From positions 1 through 64,000 of the forward strand of contig JALKBU010000033.1 in assembly GCA_023091735.1 (NCBI GenBank): DNA of 64,000 nucleotides, read 5' to 3'. Below the pieces are notes generated by a model. The model ran no database searches. It was not told the origin of the DNA and worked only from the letters and a program-made list of their open reading frames with translations. This DNA is from Trichomonas tenax. Taxonomy: Eukaryota > Parabasalia > Trichomonadida > Trichomonadidae. Position 1 is the first letter of the stretch, and each line of letters starts with the position of its first letter. Positions 23,012 through 55,859 of this stretch are shown in pieces. Position numbers and translations under genes: made by a program.

Positions 23012-26000
23012 TCAATCCCAAGATGTAATCTTTGGCTTTGAAGCAAATGGATCAACAATATCATCGAAGTTAGTGCTTCCTTCGTCATCCCATGAATTCT
23101 GTGGCACTGGTTTCTTCTTTGCTGCTCCAAATTTCTTTGATGGAGTCTTCTTTGGAGCGTAAGCACTGAATTTGTCATCATCGTCATCAGGAGGATCATC
23201 CCATGAATTATTGTCGACTTTTTTCTTTAAAGGAGCCTTCTTTTGTGGTTTAATGTCAACTTTGAAAGCATCAGAAGAATTCCAGTCATTCTTTTTCTCT
23301 GTCGTAGTCTTCTTTTCCGGTTGAATATCAACTTTAAAGGCATCTGATGAATCCCAATTATTCGATTTCTTTGCAGTTTTCTTCTTTTCTGGTTGAACAG
23401 CGACTTTGAAAGCGTCTGAAGAATCATCCCAAGAATTCTTTGGCTTTGGTTTCTTTGGCGCAGGTTTTACGACTTTAAATACGTCTTCATTATCATCATC
23501 CCAAGAATTCTTTGGTTTTGGTTTCTTCGGCTGCGCTTTCTTCTTTTGTGGTGATGTGACACTGAAAATGTCATCACCTAAGTCATCTTTCTTCCTCGGC
23601 TCTTCGAATGTTGGAACTTTCGTTTTTGGCGTTGCTGTCGTTGAGAAAATGCCTCCATCTTCAAATTTCGACTTCTTTGGTGTGAATTCTTCATCATTCG
23701 TTATTTTAGGCTTCGAAGCGAATGGATCATCAACATTATCTAAATCATAACCAACTTTTGGTTTTGATGCGAATGGATCATCAATATTATCTAAATCATA
23801 AACAACTTTTGGTTTTGATGTGAATGGATTTTCAATGTTATCGAGATAGAATGAATCTGATTTATCTTTTTCTTTCTTGAGGAAATCTAAATTATCATCA
23901 ACTTTCATTCCTGTGCTATCGATATTGTTGTTCTTTGGGATTTGAATCATCGCTGCAGAACTCGTGGCTGAAGATCCTTCCATAGCTGAAAGGTTCTTGT
24001 CACTCTTCTCTTGTGGAGCAATTTTAACGTTCTTTTCTTCGATTTTTGAGGTTTCATTGGTAACAGGTTTGATTTCTTCTTTGTTCGGTGGTTTTCCTTT
24101 AGAAGAAGAGAATAATTTTTCTTCTGCAGCTTTGACGTTATCCTCCTTTGGTTTAGAATCAATTTCAATCATTTGTGATTTGACTTCAGCGATCATTGGA
24201 GCTTCTGAAATAGATGATTTTGGTGATGGTTCATTTTCTGGTGGCTTTGATTCGATATCATTAGAAACTTTTTCAACTGGTTTTGGAGTTTCTCCTTTGA
24301 CTTCTTTTTCTTCGATTGGTTTCGATGAAAGTTCTTTTTCTTCATTTTCTTTAACTTGATTTTGTTTTGGGGATTCTTTGATTTGATTTTGTTTTGATGT
24401 TTTATTGTTTGTTTGAACAGAGATTTCTTCATCTTTGTCATCTTTTGCATCATCTGAATTAAATTCCATTATTGTTGTGTGATCAGCGACATTCTTTACA
24501 CTCTTGAATGGATTTTGAATCTTGATGTCATCAGAATCTTGTTCTTGTGGCTTGAAAACTGCGGAAACATAAGCTGACTCTGTGTTGTAAGAATCATCAG
24601 ATTCCGTTTTTTCAATTTCAATATCGAGTTTAGCTTTTGGTTGTGTTTTCGATGGAATTTGTGGCTTTGGACGCGAAGTGTGCTTTGATTTTGGTGAATT
24701 TGACTTTGAAGATATTGATTTTGAAGTTTTCGCTTTTGGATTTGGAGAAGAACTCTTTTTATCGACGTTTGTCGTTGTATTGATCGAAACCATTGGAATT
24801 TGTTGTTCCATTTGAGATTTGATGTAGCTGCGCATCACTGAATATTGCGGATCATTGACATAATCACCGGAGAATGACTGTGTTTGAAGATTTGATTTTA
24901 TTGTTGTTGAAATCGATTTCGCTGCTTTTTCGATTAATGTTTCATTGATTTCGATGTTTCTCTCTTTGGATAAGAAGTTTCTCGCCAATCTCAGCGGATT
25001 CTTGAGATCATTGTATGGATCGATTTGCAGTTGATTTTCAACACGAGGGGGTGTATACGGCTTTATTTCGATCGATTTATCGATTTGCTTTGGTTTGTTA
25101 TCCTTTTTAGGTCTTTGGACAACGATATCAGAAATTTCTTGGCTCTGCGCGAGAATGTCAATTGTGTTTGCAGATTTTGTCAACTTCAAAGGAGCGACTT
25201 TTGGCTTTTCTGGCATTTTGAGCTCGATTGTTGAAGATTCTGCAGGAATTTGGGCCGTAGTTGGCTTTGATATCATCAGTTCTTGTTTTGCTGCGAGATC
25301 AATAGCTTGCGAAGCTTCGATAATGAAATTATACCTTGGTTGATATCTTTCATCGTATGGCTTTTGTTTTGGAGATTTTTCAACATGGAACGGGTTTATA
25401 TCTTTGTGCTGCTCCTTCCATAGGTTGATTGATGATGATAACTCGTCAACAGCTCTCTCAAGATCGTCATTAATTCGTTTTCTTCTCGTGACGTTTTGTG
25501 ATTTCATATTTTCATCTTCGTCTGAAGAATCATCGGAAGAAACTTTGTTAAATAATGCAACGGCCTGATTTTCAGTTTTTTGCGTAATTTCATCCTCTCT
25601 TGAGCTTTTTTCTTTCTTGATATTTTCAGATTTTGGTGTTTCCGGTCTATTGCTTTCTTGCTTCATATTTTCTTGTAATTGGTTGATTTTGACAAGAATT
25701 TCCTGTATATCGTCCGCTTTCTTTGGTATTTCAATTCCACGAATTGCATTCCAATGTTCTATCAATGCAGGGTGTTTGTTCTGCATGTGGATGTCAACAT
25801 ACTGCCGAGATTTGAACTTCTTACTGCAAACAGGGCATTTTTCCCAAGATCCCAAAGTCGTTGTGAGGAGTTCTTCCGCTTTCTTCAGCGTCCTCGCTGT
25901 CTCCTTGTACTCCTTTTTCGTTGTCTTCAGTTGATTTTCCGATTTTGTGAGTTTTGCTTTAAAATCGTGATTTGATTTTTGTAAAAAAAGCAGTGAAAAC

Positions 26001-26251
26001 TGAAATAACTTGCATAGTTTGATGCACAACGGGTGGCTTATGATCTTGGACTCGTCTTTATCGACTTTTGCGTGTGTCAAAAATCGAATTAAAGCATTAA
26101 CTTTCGTATTTTCTTTATCTTTCTTCAATTCCTTGATGCTGCATGACATCACGTAGTTCCAGTCGAAAGATTCACCTACGTAATGCGTGGGACTCGAATA
26201 TGGCGCTGTTGCGAAAACTCCTTTTGCAGTATCATATCCTTCAATCCACAT
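23012..26251 (-). CDS. DZIP1/Iguana-like zinc-finger coiled-coil protein (basal body / ciliary transition zone)
   Basis: A protein of 1079 residues. Residues about 28-100 match the DZIP1 N-terminal domain (FDWNYVMSCSIKEL... then KLCKLFQFSLLFLQKSNHDF). A coiled coil (100-135) and one C2H2 finger follow: C139, C142, H155, H160 in KCPVCSKKFKSRQYVDIHMQ. DZIP1 proteins sit at the basal body and are needed to build cilia, which suits a flagellated cell. The remaining 900 residues are disordered and charged, with K/P/E-rich stretches and a repeat-rich tail. That tail has NPF/DPF-SKPK units near 807-850 and at the very C-terminus, and NSWDD/SSDAFKV units at 920-1030. DPF and NPF are known docking motifs for endocytic adaptors, so this tail may recruit partners; that is inference. 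ATG at 26251 is the only sensible start. Confidence 0.8.
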   Translation of the reverse strand: MWIEGYDTAKGVFATAPYSSPTHYVGESFDWNYVMSCSIKELKKDKENTKVNALIRFLTHAKVDKDESKIISHPLCIKLCKLFQFSLLFLQKSNHDFKAKLTKSENQLKTTKKEYKETARTLKKAEELLTTTLGSWEKCPVCSKKFKSRQYVDIHMQNKHPALIEHWNAIRGIEIPKKADDIQEILVKINQLQENMKQESNRPETPKSENIKKEKSSREDEITQKTENQAVALFNKVSSDDSSDEDENMKSQNVTRRKRINDDLERAVDELSSSINLWKEQHKDINPFHVEKSPKQKPYDERYQPRYNFIIEASQAIDLAAKQELMISKPTTAQIPAESSTIELKMPEKPKVAPLKLTKSANTIDILAQSQEISDIVVQRPKKDNKPKQIDKSIEIKPYTPPRVENQLQIDPYNDLKNPLRLARNFLSKERNIEINETLIEKAAKSISTTIKSNLQTQSFSGDYVNDPQYSVMRSYIKSQMEQQIPMVSINTTTNVDKKSSSPNPKAKTSKSISSKSNSPKSKHTSRPKPQIPSKTQPKAKLDIEIEKTESDDSYNTESAYVSAVFKPQEQDSDDIKIQNPFKSVKNVADHTTIMEFNSDDAKDDKDEEISVQTNNKTSKQNQIKESPKQNQVKENEEKELSSKPIEEKEVKGETPKPVEKVSNDIESKPPENEPSPKSSISEAPMIAEVKSQMIEIDSKPKEDNVKAAEEKLFSSSKGKPPNKEEIKPVTNETSKIEEKNVKIAPQEKSDKNLSAMEGSSATSSAAMIQIPKNNNIDSTGMKVDDNLDFLKKEKDKSDSFYLDNIENPFTSKPKVVYDLDNIDDPFASKPKVGYDLDNVDDPFASKPKITNDEEFTPKKSKFEDGGIFSTTATPKTKVPTFEEPRKKDDLGDDIFSVTSPQKKKAQPKKPKPKNSWDDDNEDVFKVVKPAPKKPKPKNSWDDSSDAFKVAVQPEKKKTAKKSNNWDSSDAFKVDIQPEKKTTTEKKNDWNSSDAFKVDIKPQKKAPLKKKVDNNSWDDPPDDDDDKFSAYAPKKTPSKKFGAAKKKPVPQNSWDDEGSTNFDDIVDPFASKPKITSWD

Positions 26252-44615: not shown

Positions 44616-45793
44616 TTAGAAGTTGATCTCGCGATCATAGAAGCAGGCAAGAAGGAGCTTCTCCATCTCTTTCTGTGTTGGCTTGCGTGAGTTTGTTTCA
44701 GTGCAGGCGTTGCTAAGAGCGTTCTTAGCAACTTCGCTGACGCGTGAAACAAACTCGTCCTCTTTGATGAGACCGTTCTCGTAGTTCTTGACACAGAGAG
44801 CGATGTCCATTGAGACGTTCAAGTTCCTGATCTTCTCGATGAGCTTGTCGACAACTTCATCATCGTTGTTTCCTGTGAGTCCGACGAAGCGGCCGATTGT
44901 GGCGTAGCGAGCCTTGGCCTTTGGTTCCTTAGAGTTGAACTTGATGATATTTGGAAGGTACATCGCGTTAGCGCAGCCGTGTACGTTCGGACCGCTCTTG
45001 TAGATTGTTCCTGTCTTGTGTGAGAGTGAGTGAACGATGCCAAGGAGTGCATTCGAGAACGAGATTCCAGCGAGGCATGATGCGTTGTGCATCGTAGCGC
45101 GCGCTGTCATATCGCCGTCGTATGACTTCTTGATGTTCTCGTAGATCATCTTGATCGAGTGGAGTGAGATTATGTCTGTGAAGTCGCTGTGTGCTGTTGA
45201 GACGTATCCCTCAATCAAGTGTGTGAGTGCATCAATTCCTGTAGAGGCAACTAACTTCTTCGGCATCGACTCTGTGAGCTCTGGATCTACGATCGCCATG
45301 TCAGATGTGATCACAAAGTCTGCGAGTGGGTACTTGATTCCTGTCTCATTGTCTGTGATGTAACTTCTGATGCAGTTCCAGATGTTGATGGGATCGCGAC
45401 GAAGTGTGCACGTGTTCTCATCTTAGGGAATGTGAACTGGACGCAGAGGCCCTCGAATGTTGCCTCTGGGTGTTTGTAGAAGACCCACATGGCCTTGTCG
45501 GCATCGAGTGGAGAACCACCACCGACTGCGATGATCCTGTCTGGCTGAAACTTTGTCATCGCTTCGGCACTGCGTCTGACTGTCGCGATGTTTGGATCGT
45601 GCACAACACATTCGAAGACTTCGACTTCGAGATGTGCTTCCTTCAAGTATCCGATGATCTTATCGGGGGTTCTTGCTTTCTTCATTACGCCCTGGCCGCA
45701 GAACACCATCGCCTTCTTGCCTTGGCGTTGCTTCAAGTTCTCGAGTGCGCCCTTTCCGTGGTAGATGTCTCTTGTGACCGTGAATCTTGGCAT
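44616..45793 (-). pseudogene. Iron-containing alcohol dehydrogenase gene with a frameshifting 13-base deletion
   Basis: From ATG at 45793 the frame encodes a group III iron alcohol dehydrogenase N-terminus: FCGQGVMKK, the NAD(P)-binding GGGSPLDADKAMW, then IPSTSGTASEVTS. It then runs into another frame and stops at 45311. The second half is intact in the neighbouring frame from about 45357: ITDNETGIKYPLADF, then the metal-ligand regions GIDALTHLIEGY and HSLSHKTG...GPNVHG, to the TAA at 44616. Comparison with the fragment at 40991-41106 shows that 13 bases are missing near 45357. The enzyme class interconverts alcohols and aldehydes and helps reoxidise NAD(P)H in the fermentative metabolism of trichomonads. 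Codons are G/C-rich, as in strongly expressed genes, so the loss seems recent (or is an assembly error). Confidence 0.9.
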
Positions 45794-47470: not shown

Positions 47471-48760
47471 TTAGGCATTGTGCATCTGCTGAACAAAGCT
47501 CTTGAATGTGTTGTAGTTGTCCCAGTTGTTGATGAGTGTATCGCACATTCTCAGGTATGTGAAGACCTTAAGGCCCTTAGAGACCCAACCGATGCAGCGG
47601 GAGTAGCTGCCCCAGTCGTAGACGGCAAGAGCGTTCTCACCTTCAAAGTTGAGACCAGCCCAAGCGGCGTCGTTGAGAATCTGCTGGACGAGTAATGGAG
47701 GATTAGAGCCTGAGCCGCCAGCGGTCATCTCGAGGCATGTGAAGCAGATATCAACGTTGTGTTTCTTGAAGACAGTCATTATGTCGCGATAGCCGTCGTA
47801 GTCGTAGAAGTTGTTGAAACCTGCTGTAGCTTCGGCACAGTGACAGCCTGTCATGTACCACCAGTGGATGCCGGAGATCTTAGCAGAGAGGTGTGTGTTA
47901 GGGAAGATTTCGCGGGCGATAGAAAGGACGCGATCACCATGCTCGTTGAGCTTCTGGGCGTACCACTTGATGTACCATCTGCCGTACTGCGAGGACCAGC
48001 CCTGAGATGTGCCGTCGCGCCAGAATTCTGATCCTCCTGGTTGTGTGTTCCAGCCGCCGACGTTGTATGGGTGGTGGCCCCAGTCGGAGTGTCCTGCAGC
48101 AACGGCATCCTGCTGAAGAAGTTTTGTGAACTCGGAGTCGTATGACTGGAATTGGCCGCAGCCTGGGTAGCTCCAGCCCTTCCATGCCTGGTATGATGGA
48201 TAACGGAGCTCGCCGCATGCACCAAGACCAATCTCAAGCTCCGCAATGACACCGGAGTGGATCATGGAGCCGAAATGTGTCTTGAAGGCAACCATCCAGT
48301 CCTTGTAGCACTGGAGTGGCGTTCTGCCGGCGGGTGTAACTGCGATGTTGTCCCACGCAAATGAGATGTACTCCTTGTCGTCTTTCCCGTCCTGGTCAAT
48401 AAAGAAGCAGTTCTTACCGGAGTTGCGGACAAAGTCTGGAAGGAAGATAGAGCAGTCGTCGCCGACGTTGCCGCCACACTGGTGGAATGAGAAAACAGGA
48501 ATGACTTTCATGTTGTTGTTGCGGATCAATTCAAAGGCTGTCTGGTAGCCTGTCCAGACGTAGTTCTTCTCTGTGCGCTCTGTGCGGCCCCACCAAACAT
48601 CGATCATGATGCCGTCGACACCAGCGTCGCGGCACTTCTGAAGATACCACTCGAACTGACCGCGGTTGACAAAGTTCTGGTTCTCGTCAAGCAAGTTGAG
48701 CGTCGCCATGACATAGAACTTGGAGCCACTCAACGCCTGAGATGCAAGCAAACTCAGCAT
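47471..48760 (-). CDS. Secreted beta-amylase (glycoside hydrolase family 14)
   Basis: A protein of 429 residues from ATG at 48760; a TTG nine codons earlier is not used. It begins with a short hydrophobic signal-like segment (MLSLLASQALSGS) and continues directly into the GH14 barrel. Both catalytic glutamates are visible: E184 in GLGACGELRYPSYQ (acid) and E344 in CFTCLEMTAG (base). Other conserved blocks are DVWWGRTE, FHQCGGNVGDDC and SGIHWWY. Beta-amylase releases maltose from the non-reducing ends of starch or glycogen, and trichomonads depend on host glycogen, so secretion or lysosomal action is likely. The gene is distinctly G/C-rich compared with its surroundings. GH14 is otherwise found mainly in plants and bacteria, so acquisition by transfer is possible. 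Confidence 0.95.
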   Translation of the reverse strand: MLSLLASQALSGSKFYVMATLNLLDENQNFVNRGQFEWYLQKCRDAGVDGIMIDVWWGRTERTEKNYVWTGYQTAFELIRNNNMKVIPVFSFHQCGGNVGDDCSIFLPDFVRNSGKNCFFIDQDGKDDKEYISFAWDNIAVTPAGRTPLQCYKDWMVAFKTHFGSMIHSGVIAELEIGLGACGELRYPSYQAWKGWSYPGCGQFQSYDSEFTKLLQQDAVAAGHSDWGHHPYNVGGWNTQPGGSEFWRDGTSQGWSSQYGRWYIKWYAQKLNEHGDRVLSIAREIFPNTHLSAKISGIHWWYMTGCHCAEATAGFNNFYDYDGYRDIMTVFKKHNVDICFTCLEMTAGGSGSNPPLLVQQILNDAAWAGLNFEGENALAVYDWGSYSRCIGWVSKGLKVFTYLRMCDTLINNWDNYNTFKSFVQQMHNA

Positions 48761-48764
48761 TGTG

Positions 48765-48772
48765 AAAAATGA
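48765..48772 (-). promoter_or_regulatory. Initiator of the beta-amylase gene
   Basis: The minus strand reads TCATTTTTCACAATG. Transcription at 48770 would give a 10-base leader. Confidence 0.65.
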
Positions 48773-50613
48773 TTCTCTTCCTCTCAAAATTGATGCTCAA
48801 TATTTCTTTGCGCGGTAGCCAATTTTCTGTACTTTACATAATTAACCTTTTTATCCATTTTTATACCGCATTGTCATTGTTTTTTGGCCAACGTGTTTCG
48901 GTAATCATTGCAAACTCATAAATATATTAACTCTCTAGTTATTATCTCCAAATCTTCGGAAATTGTCAAAATCAAATCAAGAGGAGACGAACAATACCGA
49001 AAATTTTTGGTATAGTTTGTAGTTTTGGGGAAGGAAGAGTCTTAGTGGAATTTCTAAACAGCAGTTATCATAGACAGTTTCTTCTGATGAATCTATTGAG
49101 TTTCGAGTGAATTTTATAAAATATATTGGATATCAAAATATGAGATTCCAACTTGATTTTGTAATATTAAGGAAATAGCTTTTGCTTGTTGTGTGTTACA
49201 TGATCAACAGTTTAAATTCCTCTAAACACAATTTTTCAAGATTATCTGATCTCTGCATAATGGCTCATGTCGTTATTCTTTGATTCAATCAGTATTGTCA
49301 GATACTATTGGATGTGTTTAATTCCATATGTAGAAAAAAGATGTAGTTTTCAAAGCATTATTTTGACAAATCAAGATTTGAAGAGGGATATCAAACCGTT
49401 GAATAGATATATGAATATTATATGGTGTGTCTAATAGATAGAAAGAATTCAACAAAAATATATCGTTGCATTGTCGAGATACACTCTAAATTAATATCTC
49501 AAAAGTGACTGAATACCGATGTGTTATTTGGAGTGCATCACATCAAGAAGATCATAAGAAGCATATCAGTTATTATACTCATATATTATAGTACTTGTAT
49601 ATACTTTTGCATCAAGTTGTATATTGTTGTTGCCTTTGTATAAATACTTGTGCTAATGTGCATTCACCCGATGCTAGAGTTATTGTGATTGATTAATCCA
49701 TGAATTCGTGTGTATTTAAGAAGTCTACATGCTATTCAAAGATACCTTATTACATGCACACAGTTTTTGATGGTTTATTATAATATTTTATGAAAAATAT
49801 GTAATATCTTATATTGAGAAGAGTGATTGGGGATTACTTAACATGAAATACTAAATTCTAGTGTATGTAGAGCATTTATTTATCATAAATAGCTAATTAT
49901 AACATATAATTAGATTCATCAAAAAATATCATATGCTATGTCAGATTAAGAGGAACACCATACTACTCATATGAGAATGTGTTATTTCTGCGCTTTCACA
50001 AGCCTCAAGTTCAGAAAAATAAAAAATTATTTTTTCAAGTCTCTTATTTCATAACATATGTACTTGGGTGCATGCTTTCGCATGCTGTGTTGAGCAGTCA
50101 ACATGTATATGGATGTGAATGAGAAAATATTAAAAATATTCACTTAAATTTTGATGCTATTCAGTATATATTATTTTGTATACGTTTGTATCCTTCCTGC
50201 ACAGAGAAACTTATCGGAAACAGTGTAAATAGCAAAAATGTTTATGATGGATAAATTTGGCAATGTAAAGTGATTGCGTCAAAATGTCAAAAAAATCAAA
50301 ATTGTATTTTTAACACGTGCACATATTATAATGCACATTTGTAGTCTAATCATAGAAAAATTATTCTTTTTTATTAAGCAATTAATATTGATTATTTCAA
50401 TATTGACGACATAGACTAATAAGCATAAGTAGAATTCATGAATACACACTATACATTTCTCATTGCCTATCAAAAGTATCAAAACTCTATTTAATATTAT
50501 CAAACTATTGAAAAATAAATATAAACAACTATCTTCCATTCTCCGTTGTCCTCATGTGCATACAGAAGGATAATATAGATTGAAATATAGATGTTTCTGT
50601 TCAAATAAAGCAA
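48773..50613. other. 1.8 kb AT-rich intergenic region
   Basis: No gene and no strong repeat found, in contrast to the hairpin-rich kilobase that follows. Confidence 0.55.
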
Positions 50614-50625
50614 AATCACGTGATT
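50614..50625. promoter_or_regulatory. 12-base palindrome with CACGTG core
   Basis: AATCACGTGATT, a perfect palindrome just before the first stem-loop of the cluster. CACGTG is a common protein-binding core. A role is not shown. Confidence 0.4.
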
Positions 50626-50636
50626 CTGTAATTTTT

Positions 50637-50720
50637 GAGCTATCCTAAAGCTCACAGTAACTCTGTTGATCATTCATTCGCGTACAAATCAACAAAATGC
50701 TGTAAAGTAGCTTAGAAAGC
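50637..50720. ncRNA. Stem-loop 0, degenerate
   Basis: TGTTGAT and ATCAACA pair around a loop of about 20 bases. Further out, ACAG/CTGT and AGCT/AGCT also pair, with small internal loops. It is weak but sits in step with the array. Confidence 0.3.
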
Positions 50721-50736
50721 AGATATTATAACCAAA

Positions 50737-50846
50737 AAGATCAAATATCATTGAAAATGACGTGTTTCTTGTTCACATCATACAGAACATCGCTACATTG
50801 AAGAAAATGGGCAGGAAACACGTCTTTCTCAATGATATTTGATCTT
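50737..50846. ncRNA. Stem-loop 1 of the cluster
   Basis: Arms 50737-50768 and 50815-50846, 30 of 32 positions complementary. The left arm begins AAGATCAAATATCATTGA and ends GACGTGTTTC. Loop 46 bases. No coding sequence overlaps. Confidence 0.65.
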
Positions 50847-50862
50847 GAAATATAGCTGGACG

Positions 50863-50909
50863 CTACATTTCATTATGTATAGTATGCATCGAATACGTGT
50901 GCTTTGTAG
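50863..50909. ncRNA. Degenerate stem between stem-loops 1 and 2
   Basis: CTACA at 50863 pairs with TGTAG ending at 50909 around an ATGCAT centre; about 13 of 18 inner positions can pair with one bulge. It fills the only double-length gap in the array. Confidence 0.25.
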
Positions 50910-50960
50910 ATCTAATTTTAGTGTTTACTGGTACCAGAAGTTGATAATTTATCCAAAAAA

Positions 50961-51064
50961 TATAAATGCCATCAAAAATGATCAATTTCTAGTAAAAACT
51001 CCTCAGAACAGCAATTGTCTGAAGAATTTGTGCCAGAAATTGATCATTTTCGATGGTATCTATA
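50961..51064. ncRNA. Stem-loop 2 of the cluster
   Basis: Arms 50961-50990 and 51035-51064, 27 of 30 complementary; core AAAATGATCAATTTCT. Loop 44 bases. Two of three mismatches are G:U on the minus strand and one on the plus strand. Confidence 0.65.
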
Positions 51065-51090
51065 AACAGAGAATTATAAATCGACAATAA

Positions 51091-51163
51091 CTTTAGTTGT
51101 CTAATAACATGATAAACTTGTGTGCATAAGCTATCTGTTTGTCATGTTATCAGACAACTAAAG
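51091..51163. ncRNA. Stem-loop 3 of the cluster
   Basis: Arms 51091-51117 and 51137-51163, 25 of 27 complementary, beginning CTTTAGTTGTCT. Loop 19 bases. One mismatch is G:U on each strand. Confidence 0.65.
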
Positions 51164-51203
51164 CGAGTAATTTAGATCGATAAATGGAGTATATGGACTT
51201 ATC

Positions 51204-51276
51204 ACATTTTCTACGACACTCTGAAGTTCACGCGTAGCCTTGTGTCTTAGGAACTTCAGAGAGTCGTAGAAAATGT
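51204..51276. ncRNA. Stem-loop 4 of the cluster
   Basis: Arms 51204-51229 and 51251-51276, 25 of 26 complementary, left arm ACATTTTCTACGAC followed by ACTCTGAAGTTC. Loop 21 bases. Confidence 0.7.
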
Positions 51277-51325
51277 AGATTTGTAAAAGAAAGTCGAACT
51301 AGCGAGATCTGAGCAAATATCGATA

Positions 51326-51395
51326 GCATCAACAGTCAACAAACCATGATGCACGAAGAAAAACTTCATATTTGTGGCTTGTTGACTGTTGATGC
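51326..51395. ncRNA. Stem-loop 5 of the cluster
   Basis: GCATCAACAGTCAACAAACC (51326-51345) against 51376-51395, 19 of 20 complementary. The loop of 30 bases holds a small inner stem GAAG/CTTC. The mismatch is G:U on the minus strand. Confidence 0.65.
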
Positions 51396-51453
51396 CTTGA
51401 TTGTGAGGGAATTGCAAGAAAATCGAAGAATTTGGGAATTCTTGAACGAATGG

Positions 51454-51522
51454 CCACTAGTTCTTCACTACCTAGAGGTGTATCTCCACTGATAATCCTC
51501 GAAAGCAGTGAAAAACTAATGG
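51454..51522. ncRNA. Stem-loop 6 of the cluster
   Basis: Arms 51454-51478 and 51497-51522, 20 of 25 complementary with one bulged base; CCACTAGTTCTTCACT against AGTGAAAAACTAATGG. Loop 18 bases. Four of five mismatches become G:U on the minus strand. Confidence 0.55.
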
Positions 51523-51956
51523 AGAAAACGCAAAAAACATTTTAACGTACAATTTTTTCACTTTTTTCTGTTTTATTTAAGTTATTAAATTCCAATATAT
51601 ATCCAAAATACTTTCAAATTATTGATTTTAAATGATTAAAGAATGCGTAAATCGCTCAATTTTTTTACTTTTTAATATTTTCCATTGAATGTTAGAAAAA
51701 TGTTTTAAGGCATAGTCTTGAAATATCAATAAATAAAAAACGAAAATTGAAATTCAGAATCTAACTACAATGCTAGGCCCGATTTCACGATTTATTGGAT
51801 GCTTGTTGGAATTTAATATCTTACTCAAAACAGAAAAAATTGACTCAATTTCTGTTGCTTCCATTTCATCTGCTTCTGGTAATGTTAATGATATAAAGTT
51901 CACTTTTCAATTCTTAAGTTTAACAAATAATAAATTTATAATACAAAACAAAATAA
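51523..51956. other. Spacer between hairpin cluster and coiled-coil gene
   Basis: No gene. The plus-strand frame 51770-52003 is a shadow of the coiled-coil gene end and its trailer. Confidence 0.55.
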
Positions 51957-54900
51957 TTATTTCGTGGCAAGTATTGGCCATGTGTATTTCTTATCTTCTC
52001 TGACTGGCTTCTTTGAAGCACCTCCATCTAGCTTTGGTATTGAAATTGCACACTTTAAGTGACCAGAAAGCTTCTGGAGTCTCCTTATTGGGATGACAAC
52101 ACTCATTAATGTTGTCAAAGATAATTCCGGCTGCTTATTGGCTTTCAACGCATTTCTAATCATGTTGGTTTGAAGCAACTGTTTCTCAGCTCTAAGGATA
52201 TCGATTCTTCTCCAGATCTGTCTTTGTCCGATGGAATTCATTAAAGCTTCCTCAAGAGTGAAACGAATTTCTTGGCTGTTCTTTGTCGAAGAGAAGTTTT
52301 CTGAAACTATAACAATCATTCTCTTTGCCCATTCTTCCCATTCCTTGGAGTTCTCTGTTGTTGAAAGATTGATTCTTGCTTTCTTCAAAGCATCAGCGAT
52401 TTTCTTTTCATCATCTTCAAGTTTCTTCTTTCTCTTCTCGAATTCTTCAACTTTTGCAGCAGCTGTTGAAACGCCTTGAATTACTGATTGTCCAGGAGCA
52501 ATCTTTAAGATGTTTCTCACCTCTGACTGCTCATTGAAAAGCTTCTGAAGATCAGAATCTCTTTTAGATGATTGGTTGAGTTTATCTGAAACTCTCTTCA
52601 AGAGATTGAAAACAGATTCAGATGAAATTGCTTCTCCAAAGTCAACAAATTCTTTGAATAATTCACAGACTTTAACATACAAAGCATGATTCTTTGCTTC
52701 AATATCTGCTTTGTAGTTGTCAAACTTTGTTTGAGAATCTGTTTCTATTGCAAGAAGTTTCATCGAATACTGTGTTTCAGCGAGTTTCTTTTCACGCTTC
52801 ATCTTCTCTTCTGAAGCATTTAACTTCATTTGGAGCATCTTCGCGTCAACTTTTGTTGATGAAAGTTGGCTCTTTAAGTCCTTGTTTTCAGATGTTGCCC
52901 TGAACAGTTCATCTTGAGCCTGTGTTTCATGCATTCTTGCATCAGCAAGTTTGGATCTCAAATCAGCGAGAATTGGTTCATAATGGCTTCTGATTTCATT
53001 CGCGCGCTTTGTCTGCATTTCTATTTCACTCTGATATCTCTTCTGATCTTCTTTGGCTTGATTCGTCATCATCTTTATCTCTTCTTTAGTTTGTTGCTCC
53101 TTTTCATCAACCAAATGTTGTAATTCGTTCATTGCATCTTGAAGTTCTTTGAGTTCTTTCTGATAATTCGCTTCAAGCTCTGCTTTCTGCTGAGCTTTTT
53201 CTTTCTCGCGCAATTGTCCGATTTCATTGATATGATTTAATTGTTCTTCTGTTGTTGTCTTTAATTCCGCGTTTTCTGCTTTGACCATTTCGTAGTCAGC
53301 TAAAAGTTTCTCTAATTGACCTTTGAGGCCTTCGATTTCTTCCTCAAGTTCATGGATCTTTTCGAGATTGTAGTTTTCTGTGTCACTCTTTTGTTCTTGG
53401 AGTTTATCCTTTTCGTTTTGGAGTGCTTCGATGTCCTTTTGAAGCTCAGAAACATGAGAACTGTATTCTTCATCGACTTGCTGCTGATTTTCGAGAATCT
53501 GGTGAATCTTTGATTCAAGCGCTTTGATATAATCTTGAAGTTGTTTGTTTTGAATTTCCTCGAATATTTCTTCGTCTTCTTCTTCCTCAGGGAACTCTGT
53601 CTGCGAAGAAAGGATGCAAAGAAGTTTGAAGTTAAATGTGTTATCAACTTCTGGTTTAGAGGATTCTTGACGAAGAAGATTTTGGGCTTTAGTGACTTTA
53701 TCAGATAAGTTTTCGAAGTCATTTTGAGCGTTCATCAGTTTATTGTTCAATTCGAATGTTGCATCTTCGATCTTTTCATTGATGCCATCATTGAGTCTCT
53801 GTAATTCATTGCTCATGTTCTTCATTTCACTCATTAACATCTGTCCGCGATTTTGCAACTCTTGTGAGAATTTGGCTAAAATTTCATTCGCTAAAGTGAA
53901 CATTTGGATGATCGCAATGTATTCGTTATAATTTTCATTGTTAAACACTCCATTCTTCTCGAAATTGGACTTAATGAACTGCGGGAAGTGCGCGAAAATG
54001 TCCGCAATCTCTTGATTTCCTTCCATGAGTTTGTTTGATTTCATGAATGTTTCGATATGCGTTACTTGCGTTGAAAGCTTCGATCTGAAGTCAGGAAGAG
54101 AATCACCGATCAGCCAGTCCTGTATATCTTGACTATTAGCGACCTGATCGATGAAATGAACCAAATTGCAAATATAAACAAGCAATCTTTCATTTCTCGG
54201 TTGCAGAACTTGTTCATCTTCAGTCTTTACGTTCGTTAATTTTCCTGTATTATTATTATACAATATTTCGAATGATTTTGTGATATTTTCAGTTGTATTC
54301 TGGTTGTTCTTTAATGTTTCTATGACTTGGTCTATAATTTCGTTGTTCTCTTGCAATGATTCGATGAAATCAAGAAGTTTGTCTACAATTTCTTTATGGT
54401 CGCATTTCTTCTCTTCTTTCTCTTTAACGACATCATTTAGCTTTTGTTGGATTTGTTTGCAGCGTTCTGTTTCCTCTTCCACCTGTTTCTTCATATCGGA
54501 AATTTGGTTCTCTAATTCAGCAACAACGAGATTTTGCTTCTGAAGTAGTGTATAAAGTTTGTTTTTAGCTTCGTTTTCATTTGCCAAATCGCTGAGTGTA
54601 TCGTTCTGTTGAGCAGCTAATTCATCTAAAGCGACATTGAGCTTTGATATTTCGTTATCTTTAGCCTCTAAATCGGCTTCGCTCGCCGAATTATTTAATT
54701 TTAATCTTAATTGCGCTTGACTTTCATCCAAATCAACTTGAAGCTTGTCATTTTGCATCTTTAGTGATTCTATTTCCACCTGCTGATTCTGATATTCTTG
54801 TTTCAATAATTTGATTTTATTATGAAGATCGCGATTCTTGTCTCTCTTGCGCTTGTTGTCTTCTGATAAGTCATTGACTTTCATTTGCAACACGTTATTG

Positions 54901-55859
54901 TCTGTTTCGAGCACAAAAATTTTTGCATCATTCGAATCGTTGCGATTAACTTGTTCTTTGAGCTTAGATATTTGAAGAGTGAGATCATTGATCATATCGG
55001 ACCTTGATGTCTCACTCTTTTGCGATGATTCAAGTTCTGCTTTCAGTTGTGAATTTTGACTCTTCAGCTTTTCGATTTCTTGCTTAGCATTGGCGTCATC
55101 GACAATCTTATCAACGTCAATGACGTTCTGCTTAATATCAGAAGATTCGCTCGAATCAAAGATATTTGTTGGCGTTTGGATCATTCCAACGAGTCTACGG
55201 TTCTCTGCCTCCAAGGCTCTGATTCTGTCGTCTTTATCTTCTGGATTTATAATATGAGATATTTTTATTTGTGATAAAGCGTCATGGATCGTTGTATCTG
55301 TTGGCAAATTGAAGTATGTGATGAGGTATTTGATTAGGTGATTAGTTTTTTCTTGTATTTCTTTGTCTGTAGCATCAATTAATTCGATGTTTGAAGGATT
55401 CGAAATTTCAGACTTAGACGATAAAGTATTTGGCGTATCTTCATAGGACGTTGTTGTTTGACGGAGAGAATCGTAGCTTGACTTTAATTTGTCATATTGT
55501 TCTTTATTCGAATGTTCAAGAACCAAAAGTGCGTACGTTATGACTCTGTATGCATGGTAATAACGTGGTCCTGGCCCAATTCGTAAAGATGGATCTTTTC
55601 CGTTACTTTTCAAATCTTCAAGTAATTTTTCAACGAAGTCCATGATTTGTTCGTGCTGTTCCTCAGTGATATCTGTAGTATTTTCGATATTTAGTCCATT
55701 TTCGCTTAAATATTTAGATAACTGAACAAGATTTAAATACATTGAGGAATCAGACGAACTTGAAGTGTTCTGCAGCTCACTCTGCGATCCGCTCAGACAA
55801 CAGTTCTCTTCACTGAGGTTTTGATCGAGAATTGTTTGCCCAAGCTTTTCTTTTTCCAT
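51957..55859 (-). CDS. Giant coiled-coil protein, probably cytoskeletal
   Basis: A protein of 1300 residues from ATG at 55859. Residues 1-45 are serine-rich and disordered. Residues about 40-150 form a helical globular head (YLNLVQLSKYLSENGLNIEN, then RIGPGPRYYHAYRVITYALLVLEH) with no family that I recognise. Residues about 210-520, 630-760 and 790-1190 are charged heptad repeats, so the protein is a very long coiled coil in several rods. The C-terminal 100 residues are basic and compact (PIRRLQKLSGHLKCAISIPKL, ending KKYTWPILATK). Such proteins build centrosome, basal-body, axostyle or Golgi-tether structures; the choice cannot be made from sequence. TTACGTGACA lies 70 bases upstream of the start and a near-E2F site GGCGCCAA at 55899-55906. 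Confidence 0.8.
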   Translation of the reverse strand: MEKEKLGQTILDQNLSEENCCLSGSQSELQNTSSSSDSSMYLNLVQLSKYLSENGLNIENTTDITEEQHEQIMDFVEKLLEDLKSNGKDPSLRIGPGPRYYHAYRVITYALLVLEHSNKEQYDKLKSSYDSLRQTTTSYEDTPNTLSSKSEISNPSNIELIDATDKEIQEKTNHLIKYLITYFNLPTDTTIHDALSQIKISHIINPEDKDDRIRALEAENRRLVGMIQTPTNIFDSSESSDIKQNVIDVDKIVDDANAKQEIEKLKSQNSQLKAELESSQKSETSRSDMINDLTLQISKLKEQVNRNDSNDAKIFVLETDNNVLQMKVNDLSEDNKRKRDKNRDLHNKIKLLKQEYQNQQVEIESLKMQNDKLQVDLDESQAQLRLKLNNSASEADLEAKDNEISKLNVALDELAAQQNDTLSDLANENEAKNKLYTLLQKQNLVVAELENQISDMKKQVEEETERCKQIQQKLNDVVKEKEEKKCDHKEIVDKLLDFIESLQENNEIIDQVIETLKNNQNTTENITKSFEILYNNNTGKLTNVKTEDEQVLQPRNERLLVYICNLVHFIDQVANSQDIQDWLIGDSLPDFRSKLSTQVTHIETFMKSNKLMEGNQEIADIFAHFPQFIKSNFEKNGVFNNENYNEYIAIIQMFTLANEILAKFSQELQNRGQMLMSEMKNMSNELQRLNDGINEKIEDATFELNNKLMNAQNDFENLSDKVTKAQNLLRQESSKPEVDNTFNFKLLCILSSQTEFPEEEEDEEIFEEIQNKQLQDYIKALESKIHQILENQQQVDEEYSSHVSELQKDIEALQNEKDKLQEQKSDTENYNLEKIHELEEEIEGLKGQLEKLLADYEMVKAENAELKTTTEEQLNHINEIGQLREKEKAQQKAELEANYQKELKELQDAMNELQHLVDEKEQQTKEEIKMMTNQAKEDQKRYQSEIEMQTKRANEIRSHYEPILADLRSKLADARMHETQAQDELFRATSENKDLKSQLSSTKVDAKMLQMKLNASEEKMKREKKLAETQYSMKLLAIETDSQTKFDNYKADIEAKNHALYVKVCELFKEFVDFGEAISSESVFNLLKRVSDKLNQSSKRDSDLQKLFNEQSEVRNILKIAPGQSVIQGVSTAAAKVEEFEKRKKKLEDDEKKIADALKKARINLSTTENSKEWEEWAKRMIVIVSENFSSTKNSQEIRFTLEEALMNSIGQRQIWRRIDILRAEKQLLQTNMIRNALKANKQPELSLTTLMSVVIPIRRLQKLSGHLKCAISIPKLDGGASKKPVREDKKYTWPILATK

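What the first reader, a model, noticed from the sequence alone, without database searches (positions are those of the whole stretch)
50637..51522. Array of six to eight unrelated stem-loops: candidate hairpin-RNA / microRNA-like locus
Six strong stem-loops start at 50737, 50961, 51091, 51204, 51326 and 51454, with arms of 20-32 bases that are 80-96% complementary and loops of 18-46 bases. Degenerate stems at about 50637 and 50863 fill the remaining slots, so the pitch is a steady 97-130 bases. The arms differ from one hairpin to the next, so this is not a repeat array. It is a row of independently formed hairpins in non-coding DNA, as in a polycistronic primary microRNA. Of the stem mismatches, 9 become G:U pairs if the minus strand is transcribed and 2 if the plus strand is. 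The minus strand also continues from the coiled-coil gene ending at 51957.
Basis: partly seen in the sequence, partly recalled or inferred. Interest (0 to 1): 0.9.

Follow-up and report, generated by a model that had tools for sequence, protein, structure and literature searches.

The report
Hairpin array inside a dispersed transposon
The row of six hairpins is real, but it is an internal part of a mobile DNA element scattered through this Trichomonas-like genome, and its paired arms look as if they are kept matching mostly by DNA-copying errors rather than by serving as microRNAs.

Summary
Six strong hairpins (50737-51522) are confirmed: 0 of 200 shuffles fold as well, on either strand. The two "degenerate" slots are weak or absent. 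The array is an internal module of a non-coding transposon (48981 to ~51850 here) in a relative of Trichomonas vaginalis. One search found 41 places of 441 bp or more (40 of 348 candidates scored). Two fetched copies are complete, with terminal inverted repeats and 10-11 bp target duplications; the window copy is right-truncated. Families about 75% identical keep most hairpins. H1 and H2 are old duplicates whose arms changed together (11 compensated pairs; chance 4.65). The minus-strand G:U argument fails across the family. In 17 close copies, arms are barely more conserved than spacers, and mismatches are re-matched about twice as fast as pairs are broken (p 0.004). This fits DNA template switching between arms better than selection for microRNA precursors. 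A hairpin-RNA role is not excluded: the genome encodes a Piwi protein and a frame with two RNase III domains. No RNA data could be examined.

The parts
48981..51850 (+). Non-autonomous transposon copy carrying the array (left end intact, right side truncated; right limit about 51799-51850)
   Evidence: Dispersed repeat with a left limit at 48981 in many copies; homology of many copies stops at about 51799, local inverted repeat runs to 51850; no target duplication adjoining a right terminus found for the window copy
48981..49027 (+). Left terminal repeat GAGGAGA..., itself a palindrome
   Evidence: Same start with different flanks in the copies printed; inverted at the right end of L021 and L030; 50 matches to the tip pattern genome-wide with up to 3 mismatches, 0 in the control
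50481..51551 (.). Hairpin module shared with families whose flanks mostly do not align to the window's element (limits approximate)
   Evidence: L036 aligns to the window from 50511 to 51561 when the query was 48000-54000, and to L021 from about 50481; L041-L044 end at 51542-51551. In some families similarity runs on into S (C532 and C666 to about 51700 at 69%; L034)
50737..50846 (.). Hairpin H1
   Evidence: z -8.7 (minus) and -9.7 (plus)
50961..51064 (.). Hairpin H2, paralogue of H1 at offset 221
   Evidence: z -11.7/-10.4; duplication
51091..51163 (.). Hairpin H3
   Evidence: z -9.6/-10.5
51204..51276 (.). Hairpin H4
   Evidence: z -7.5/-8.7
51326..51395 (.). Hairpin H5
   Evidence: z -9.5/-7.7
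51454..51522 (.). Hairpin H6 (its loop is reversed in copies L028 and L030)
   Evidence: z -7.6/-4.8; reversal
51556..51799 (.). Segment S, flanked by an inverted repeat (51551-51619 and 51782-51850, 74%); reversed in 4 fetched loci

Best explanation
The array is an internal, non-coding module of a family of non-autonomous terminal-inverted-repeat transposons in a Trichomonas species. The window holds one truncated, decaying copy between a beta-amylase gene and a coiled-coil gene. The hairpins are DNA quasi-palindromes. Their arms are kept complementary mainly by strand (template) switching during DNA replication, which copies one arm onto the other and at times reverses the stretch between or beside them. 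The module therefore maintains its own hairpins with little selection. Shown: dispersed repeat, termini, target duplications, six hairpins, co-change of arms, and reversals at H6 and S. Inferred: template switching as the main force, and the absence of an essential RNA product.
For: Dispersed family: 41 places of 441 bp or more, window included, with 40 of 348 candidates scored; 35 places with both 15-base H2 arms exact, 0 for the reversed control pattern. Both fetched copies with two tips have target duplications (11 and 10 bp). Most hairpins are kept in families at about 75% identity. Compensation: 38 of 176 pairs with both sides changed (shuffles 27.3, slid controls 16-21). H1 against H2, core consensus: 11 compensated pairs (null 4.65; 9 of 20000 reach 11), and these lie next to each other more than expected (7 against 2.9; 48 of 20000). 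Within 17 close copies, transition mismatches are re-matched in 18/273 cells while pairs are broken by a transition in 75/2538 (Fisher 0.0036; variants seen in one copy only: 9/262 against 33/2482, p 0.015). No clear wobble preference on either strand. H6 loop reversed in 2 of 28 arrays tested; S reversed in 4 of the 8 loci that hold it whole, among 20 loci compared. Template switching is reported to homogenise arms and invert spacers (PMC8604942, abstract and outline) and to create and keep RNA hairpins (PMC8794818, abstract and outline).
Against: One covariation measure does not exceed its control: further pair types 128 against 124.2 in shuffles (84 of 500 reach it). Between L034 and the most diverged group compensated doubles show no excess (3 against about 3.4). 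On internal tree branches, pairs going to G:T (45) outnumber pairs going to A:C (28), and A:C is resolved more often than G:T (34 against 15). That is what selection on a plus-strand RNA would give, but it depends on the root; on terminal branches the counts are 73 and 71. Mismatched sites may simply be more mutable, which would inflate the re-matching rate. H6 reversal in L030 adjoins the inverted terminal region, so it may be a larger rearrangement joined at H6. Adjacent changes also arise in mutation-dense stretches.
Confidence: 0.5

Rival explanations
1. Transposon-borne hairpin-RNA locus: the module is transcribed, each stem forms double-stranded RNA, and a Dicer-like enzyme with the Piwi-type Argonaute makes small RNAs that act on the element or on host genes. 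Selection on the active elements keeps the stems paired.
For: Stems kept with excess compensatory change over deep divergence; the genome has one Piwi-domain match and one 832-aa frame with two RNase III domains. T. vaginalis has ~34-nt 5'-U small RNAs correlated with reduced expression of genes and transposons, and PIWI-like Argonautes (PMC7845603, passages). Internal-branch G:T/A:C asymmetry points to the plus strand.
Against: No clear wobble bias in 31 arrays or six group consensuses; arms barely more conserved than spacers within the close family; no Rfam match at gathering score. miRNAs were found at very low abundance in T. vaginalis (PMC7844918, passages). One diverged family (L041-L044) has lost H1 and weakened H3 and H5.
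Confidence: 0.22
2. DNA hairpins or cruciforms as cis-acting sites: the folded module is recognised by the transposase or a replication protein and is needed for the element to move.
For: The module is shared by families whose flanks mostly do not align, and no strand bias is expected for a DNA structure. The left terminus is a palindrome as well.
Against: No fixed relation of the array to the ends was seen in the two complete copies L021 and L030; no transposase gene was found on a contig that carries the same tip, but only the MULE family was searched.
Confidence: 0.18
3. Plain fossil: nearly perfect hairpins existed in the common ancestor of the families and are only decaying, with no maintenance.
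For: Paired fraction falls with divergence: 156 of 176 pairs Watson-Crick in the core consensus, 136-152 (of 171-176) in the ~75% groups, 95 of 141 in the most diverged; single-sided changes far outnumber double ones; no excess of compensated doubles between L034 and the most diverged group.
Against: H1 and H2 differ in 17 and 19 of 38 arm positions and yet both are well paired, with 11 compensated double changes; compensated doubles between the core and the five other groups are 6-9 where independence predicts about 1-3.
Confidence: 0.1

Closest known systems
MULE (Mutator-like) DNA transposons of Trichomonas (TvMULE)
   Same: 9-11 bp target duplications (table row in PMC6446971, passages); 10 and 11 bp here; terminal inverted repeats; 11 MULE-domain matches in this genome
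   Different: No coding capacity; terminal repeats 51-62 nt against 20-38 bp; none of the 11 MULE-domain contigs is among the contigs listed with this element's tip
IS481EU / Banshee elements of parabasalids
   Same: DNA transposons, some non-autonomous, with short terminal repeats in Trichomonas (PMC10045372, passages)
   Different: Their T. vaginalis ends are TNT..AYA with about 4, 15 or 25 bp target duplications; here GAGGAG..CTCCTC with 10-11 bp
Transposon-derived microRNA genes (MITE-derived)
   Same: Hairpins in non-coding transposon DNA (PMC10004981, search listing only)
   Different: There, as I recall, one hairpin formed by the element's own terminal repeats; here six internal hairpins and no evidence of RNA
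Quasi-palindromes maintained by template switching
   Same: Multi-base arm homogenisation and inversion of the stretch between arms (PMC8604942 and PMC8794818, abstracts and outlines)
   Different: Those abstracts treat yeast coding genes and RNA genes; here a row of six carried and spread by a transposon

Membership tests
microRNA / hairpin-RNA cluster | Strong local hairpins | tested here: met
   six hairpins
microRNA / hairpin-RNA cluster | Transcribed and processed into defined small RNAs | not testable with these tools
   No RNA data available
microRNA / hairpin-RNA cluster | Arms conserved, loops and spacers drifting | tested here: not met
   17 close copies: arms 92-98%, spacers 93.9%, loops 90-95% except H6 79%, lowered by the two reversed loops. 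Among 7 arrays of different families: arms 74-87%, spacers 74%, loops 56-79%, so only a weak effect
microRNA / hairpin-RNA cluster | Match to a curated RNA family | tested here: not met
   8 weak matches, all below their gathering scores
microRNA / hairpin-RNA cluster | Host encodes Argonaute and RNase III enzymes | tested here: met
Terminal-inverted-repeat DNA transposon, non-autonomous | Dispersed copies with exact termini in unrelated flanks | tested here: met
Terminal-inverted-repeat DNA transposon, non-autonomous | Target-site duplication around complete copies | tested here: met
   Both fetched copies with two tips, 11 and 10 bp. In the other 13 of 15 loci tested no duplication adjoins a right terminus; in L026 the tip used may belong to another copy. 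Four further contigs with two facing tips (C52, C869, C1064, C1178) were not tested
Mutator-like (MULE) superfamily | MURA-type transposase or autonomous partner with the same ends | tested here: inconclusive
   11 MULE matches in the genome, none on a contig listed with this tip
Mutator-like (MULE) superfamily | 8-11 bp target duplication | tested here: met
   range from PMC6446971 passages

The most novel reading that the evidence does not exclude
A transposon family carries a polycistronic array of diversified hairpin RNAs that feeds the parasite's Piwi/Dicer-like pathway. The hairpin units duplicate and their arms co-diverge, so that each element family brings its own set of guide RNAs.
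Probability: 0.15. Interest if true: 0.8.

Novelty: new variant of a known kind. Interest (0 to 1): 0.42.

Why it matters
Excess compensatory change is often taken as proof of a functional RNA. Here dozens of decaying copies of one hairpin row let one ask directly whether arm-to-arm copying in DNA can produce that signal without selection. If instead the stems make small RNAs, this would be a transposon that carries its own hairpin-RNA cluster, in a group of protists where the making of the ~34-nt small RNAs was still an open question in 2021 (PMC7845603, passages).

Tried and rejected
Rfam at E up to 1 gave only 8 weak plant and animal miRNA look-alikes. Search for a 20-base stretch of the H2 arm in viral contigs: 0 exact matches. 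Relation among hairpin units other than H1/H2: no pair exceeds z 3.6 in any of six group consensuses. MULE transposase as partner: no contig shared with the listed tips. Loop reversal at H4 (L033, L039, L044) and H5 (L033) was flagged, but with low scores in both directions; I do not count these. The internal-branch asymmetry towards the plus strand is reported but not relied on, because the group count, which needs no root, shows none.

Literature: searches for 'Trichomonas vaginalis + transposable element + hairpin' (20 of 24 papers listed), 'Trichomonas + transposon + terminal inverted repeat + non-autonomous' (14 of 14), 'transposable element + array of hairpins' (0 papers) and 'Trichomonas + palindromic + repeat family + transposon' (0 papers) showed no title or abstract opening that describes this element. 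Six papers were opened, four as passages and two as abstract and outline; none was read whole. Repbase could not be searched.

Rows left out of counts: L028 and L030 from the H6 part; L033 and L038b from the six groups; one search folded 15 of the 31 arrays. The alignment holds 31 arrays, a part of what the genome has.

Full report
WHAT IS THERE. Inverted-repeat search lists H1-H5. RNA folding of each hairpin gives z between -4.8 and -11.7 on the two strands, with 0 of 200 dinucleotide shuffles folding as well. Of the two 'degenerate' slots, 50630-50720 is weak (z -2.5) and 50855-50945 is no hairpin (z +0.2), both folded on the minus strand. In 15 representative arrays the first slot is weak or absent and the second never reaches z -2 in the 14 arrays that cover it. 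The longest stop-to-stop frame in 48981-51850 is 90 aa.

HOST. The beta-amylase gene left of the array (47471-48787, minus) is 83% identical to a Trichomonas vaginalis G3 protein and 60% or less to the Tritrichomonas foetus and Histomonas proteins listed. The genome is therefore taken as a Trichomonas relative of T. vaginalis; the assembly has 53.4 Mb in 1528 contigs.

IT IS PART OF A TRANSPOSON. A search of the host genome with 50600-51600 found 41 places of 441 bp or more, at 69-100% identity, the window included; 40 of 348 first-look candidates were scored, so this is a lower bound. Searches with the flanks place a sharp left limit at 48981 and a common right limit near 51799. The left end reads GAGGAG... 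at the same base in copies with different flanks and is itself a palindrome. Two fetched copies, L021 and L030, have this tip inverted at the far end, and both are flanked by direct repeats, of 11 and 10 bp. In the other 13 of 15 loci tested no duplication adjoins a right terminus; in L026 the tip used lies far from the core and may belong to another copy. Four further contigs with two facing tips (C52, C869, C1064, C1178) were not tested. The window copy has one end: its right side ends in segment S and an inverted copy of the stretch before S, to about 51850. S is reversed in L021, L023, L025 and L026 and forward in L017, L020, L022 and L029. L017 and L029 continue past S into a reverse copy of the stretch before it (my reading of the printed letters), so the right side is a fold-back region cut at different places.

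THE MODULE IS SHARED. Families about 75% identical to the window, and one about 61-64% identical, align to it from about 50480-50511. On the right, L041-L044 stop at 51542-51551, while C532 and C666 run on into S at 69%. The query was 50501-51600, so ends near its edges there are no limits; the wider query gives 50511-51561 for L036. For L036 against L021, and L042 against L030, the flanks did not align apart from one 134-bp piece that lies elsewhere in L036. Left ends of L036, L038 and L039 also begin with GAGGAG. H1-H6 are present in most of the ~75% families; exceptions are H1 in L039, H3 on one strand in L035, H4 on one strand in L040 and a partly missing H6 in L034. In the most diverged group (L041-L044) H1 is lost, H2, H4 and H6 remain but weaker, and H3 and H5 are weak. 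Thirty-five places in the genome have both exact 15-base arms of H2, with none for the reversed control pattern; the window copy, with one changed base, is not among them.

HAIRPINS RELATED TO EACH OTHER. H1 and H2 align without a gap across stem, loop and preceding spacer at offset 221, which is also the offset of their axes (z 7.0; z 3.5-9.6 in five of six group consensuses, -0.5 in the sixth, which lacks H1). In the core consensus their 5' and 3' arms differ at 17 and 19 of 38 positions, yet 11 pairs changed on both sides and stayed Watson-Crick (null 4.65; 9 of 20000 permutations reach 11). No other pair of units exceeds z 3.6 in any group.

HOW THE ARMS STAY PAIRED. On 31 arrays (alignment A1) 87.2% of cells pair (85.5% in shuffles, 36-46% in slid controls); 38 of 176 pairs have a change on both sides against 27.3 in shuffles and 16-21 in slid controls, but the number of further pair types (128) does not exceed shuffles (124.2; 84 of 500). 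Between the core and the five other groups there are 6-9 compensated doubles where independence predicts about 1-3; between L034 and the most diverged group there is no excess (3 against about 3.4). Within the 17 close copies the arms are hardly more conserved than spacers: after insertion, copies decay. Mismatch types show no clear strand: 288 G:T and 361 A:C cells over all arrays, 64 and 73 among six group consensuses. The window's own 4 to 11 is therefore no evidence for a minus-strand transcript. Rooted events are even on terminal branches (73 and 71 created) and lean to the plus strand on internal branches (45 G:T and 28 A:C created; 15 and 34 resolved), which depends on the root. Compensated changes sit next to one another more than expected (H1/H2: 7 adjacent against 2.9, 48 of 20000; among group consensuses 8 against 4.3, 178 of 5000). 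In the 17 close copies a transition mismatch of the majority sequence is re-matched in 18 of 273 cells while a paired site is broken by a transition in 75 of 2538 (variants shared by at most 3 copies, Fisher 0.0036; the other three cut-offs give p 0.015, 0.006 and 0.005). Mismatched sites may be more mutable, so this is suggestive only. The loop of H6 is reversed in L028 and L030, 2 of 28 arrays tested; in L030 the reversed hairpin adjoins the inverted end of the element, so it may be part of a larger rearrangement. Arm homogenisation and spacer inversion are the two reported marks of template switching between inverted repeats (PMC8604942, abstract and outline), and the same process has been proposed to create and maintain RNA hairpins (PMC8794818, abstract and outline). 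I therefore rate DNA template switching as the likeliest force, at about one half, and do not claim that it excludes an RNA role.

RNA ROLE. The genome has one Piwi-domain match and one 832-aa frame with two RNase III domains. T. vaginalis small RNAs have a modal length of 34 nt with 5' U bias, and two PIWI-like Argonautes and a Dicer ortholog are described (PMC7845603, passages). miRNAs were extremely rare in another survey (PMC7844918, passages). No RNA data could be examined here, so transcription of the array is unknown. Read-through from the coiled-coil gene that stops at 51957 would be particular to this insertion and not a family feature (inference).

CLASSIFICATION. It works like, and by its ends and target duplications is, a non-autonomous terminal-inverted-repeat DNA transposon. 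Target duplications of 10-11 bp fit the Mutator-like superfamily (9-11 bp for TvMULE, PMC6446971 passages), but no transposase with these ends was found (only the MULE family was searched), so I do not file it there. It fails the conservation and family-match tests of a microRNA cluster, and the decisive test (small RNAs) could not be run.

Noticed in passing
window 44616-45793 (minus): An iron-containing alcohol-dehydrogenase-like gene (named from recall of its sequence, no family search) appears split into two overlapping frames (45311-45793 and 44616-45314), so it is a pseudogene or holds a sequencing error.
   Followed up: no
window 51957-55859 (minus): 1300-aa coiled-coil protein with a weak match to ATG16 below the curated cut-off, probably only coiled-coil similarity; strong AT skew over 52-56 kb.
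   Followed up: no
window 24001-26000: Very strong AT skew (-0.346) within a 1079-aa minus-strand frame (23012-26251) that also holds tandem repeats of 72 and 51 bp.
   Followed up: no
L033 4356-5207: Array that looks recombinant: about 83-95% identical to the window family up to about 51070 and about 58-78% after that.
   Followed up: partly
L030 1166-2135 and 4311-5328: Two arrays of different families, in opposite orientation, lie about 2 kb apart in the same contig.
   Followed up: no
L031 2390-6073: Composite copy: window-type left end at one side and the core and array in reverse at the other, another fold-back-like rearrangement.
   Followed up: no
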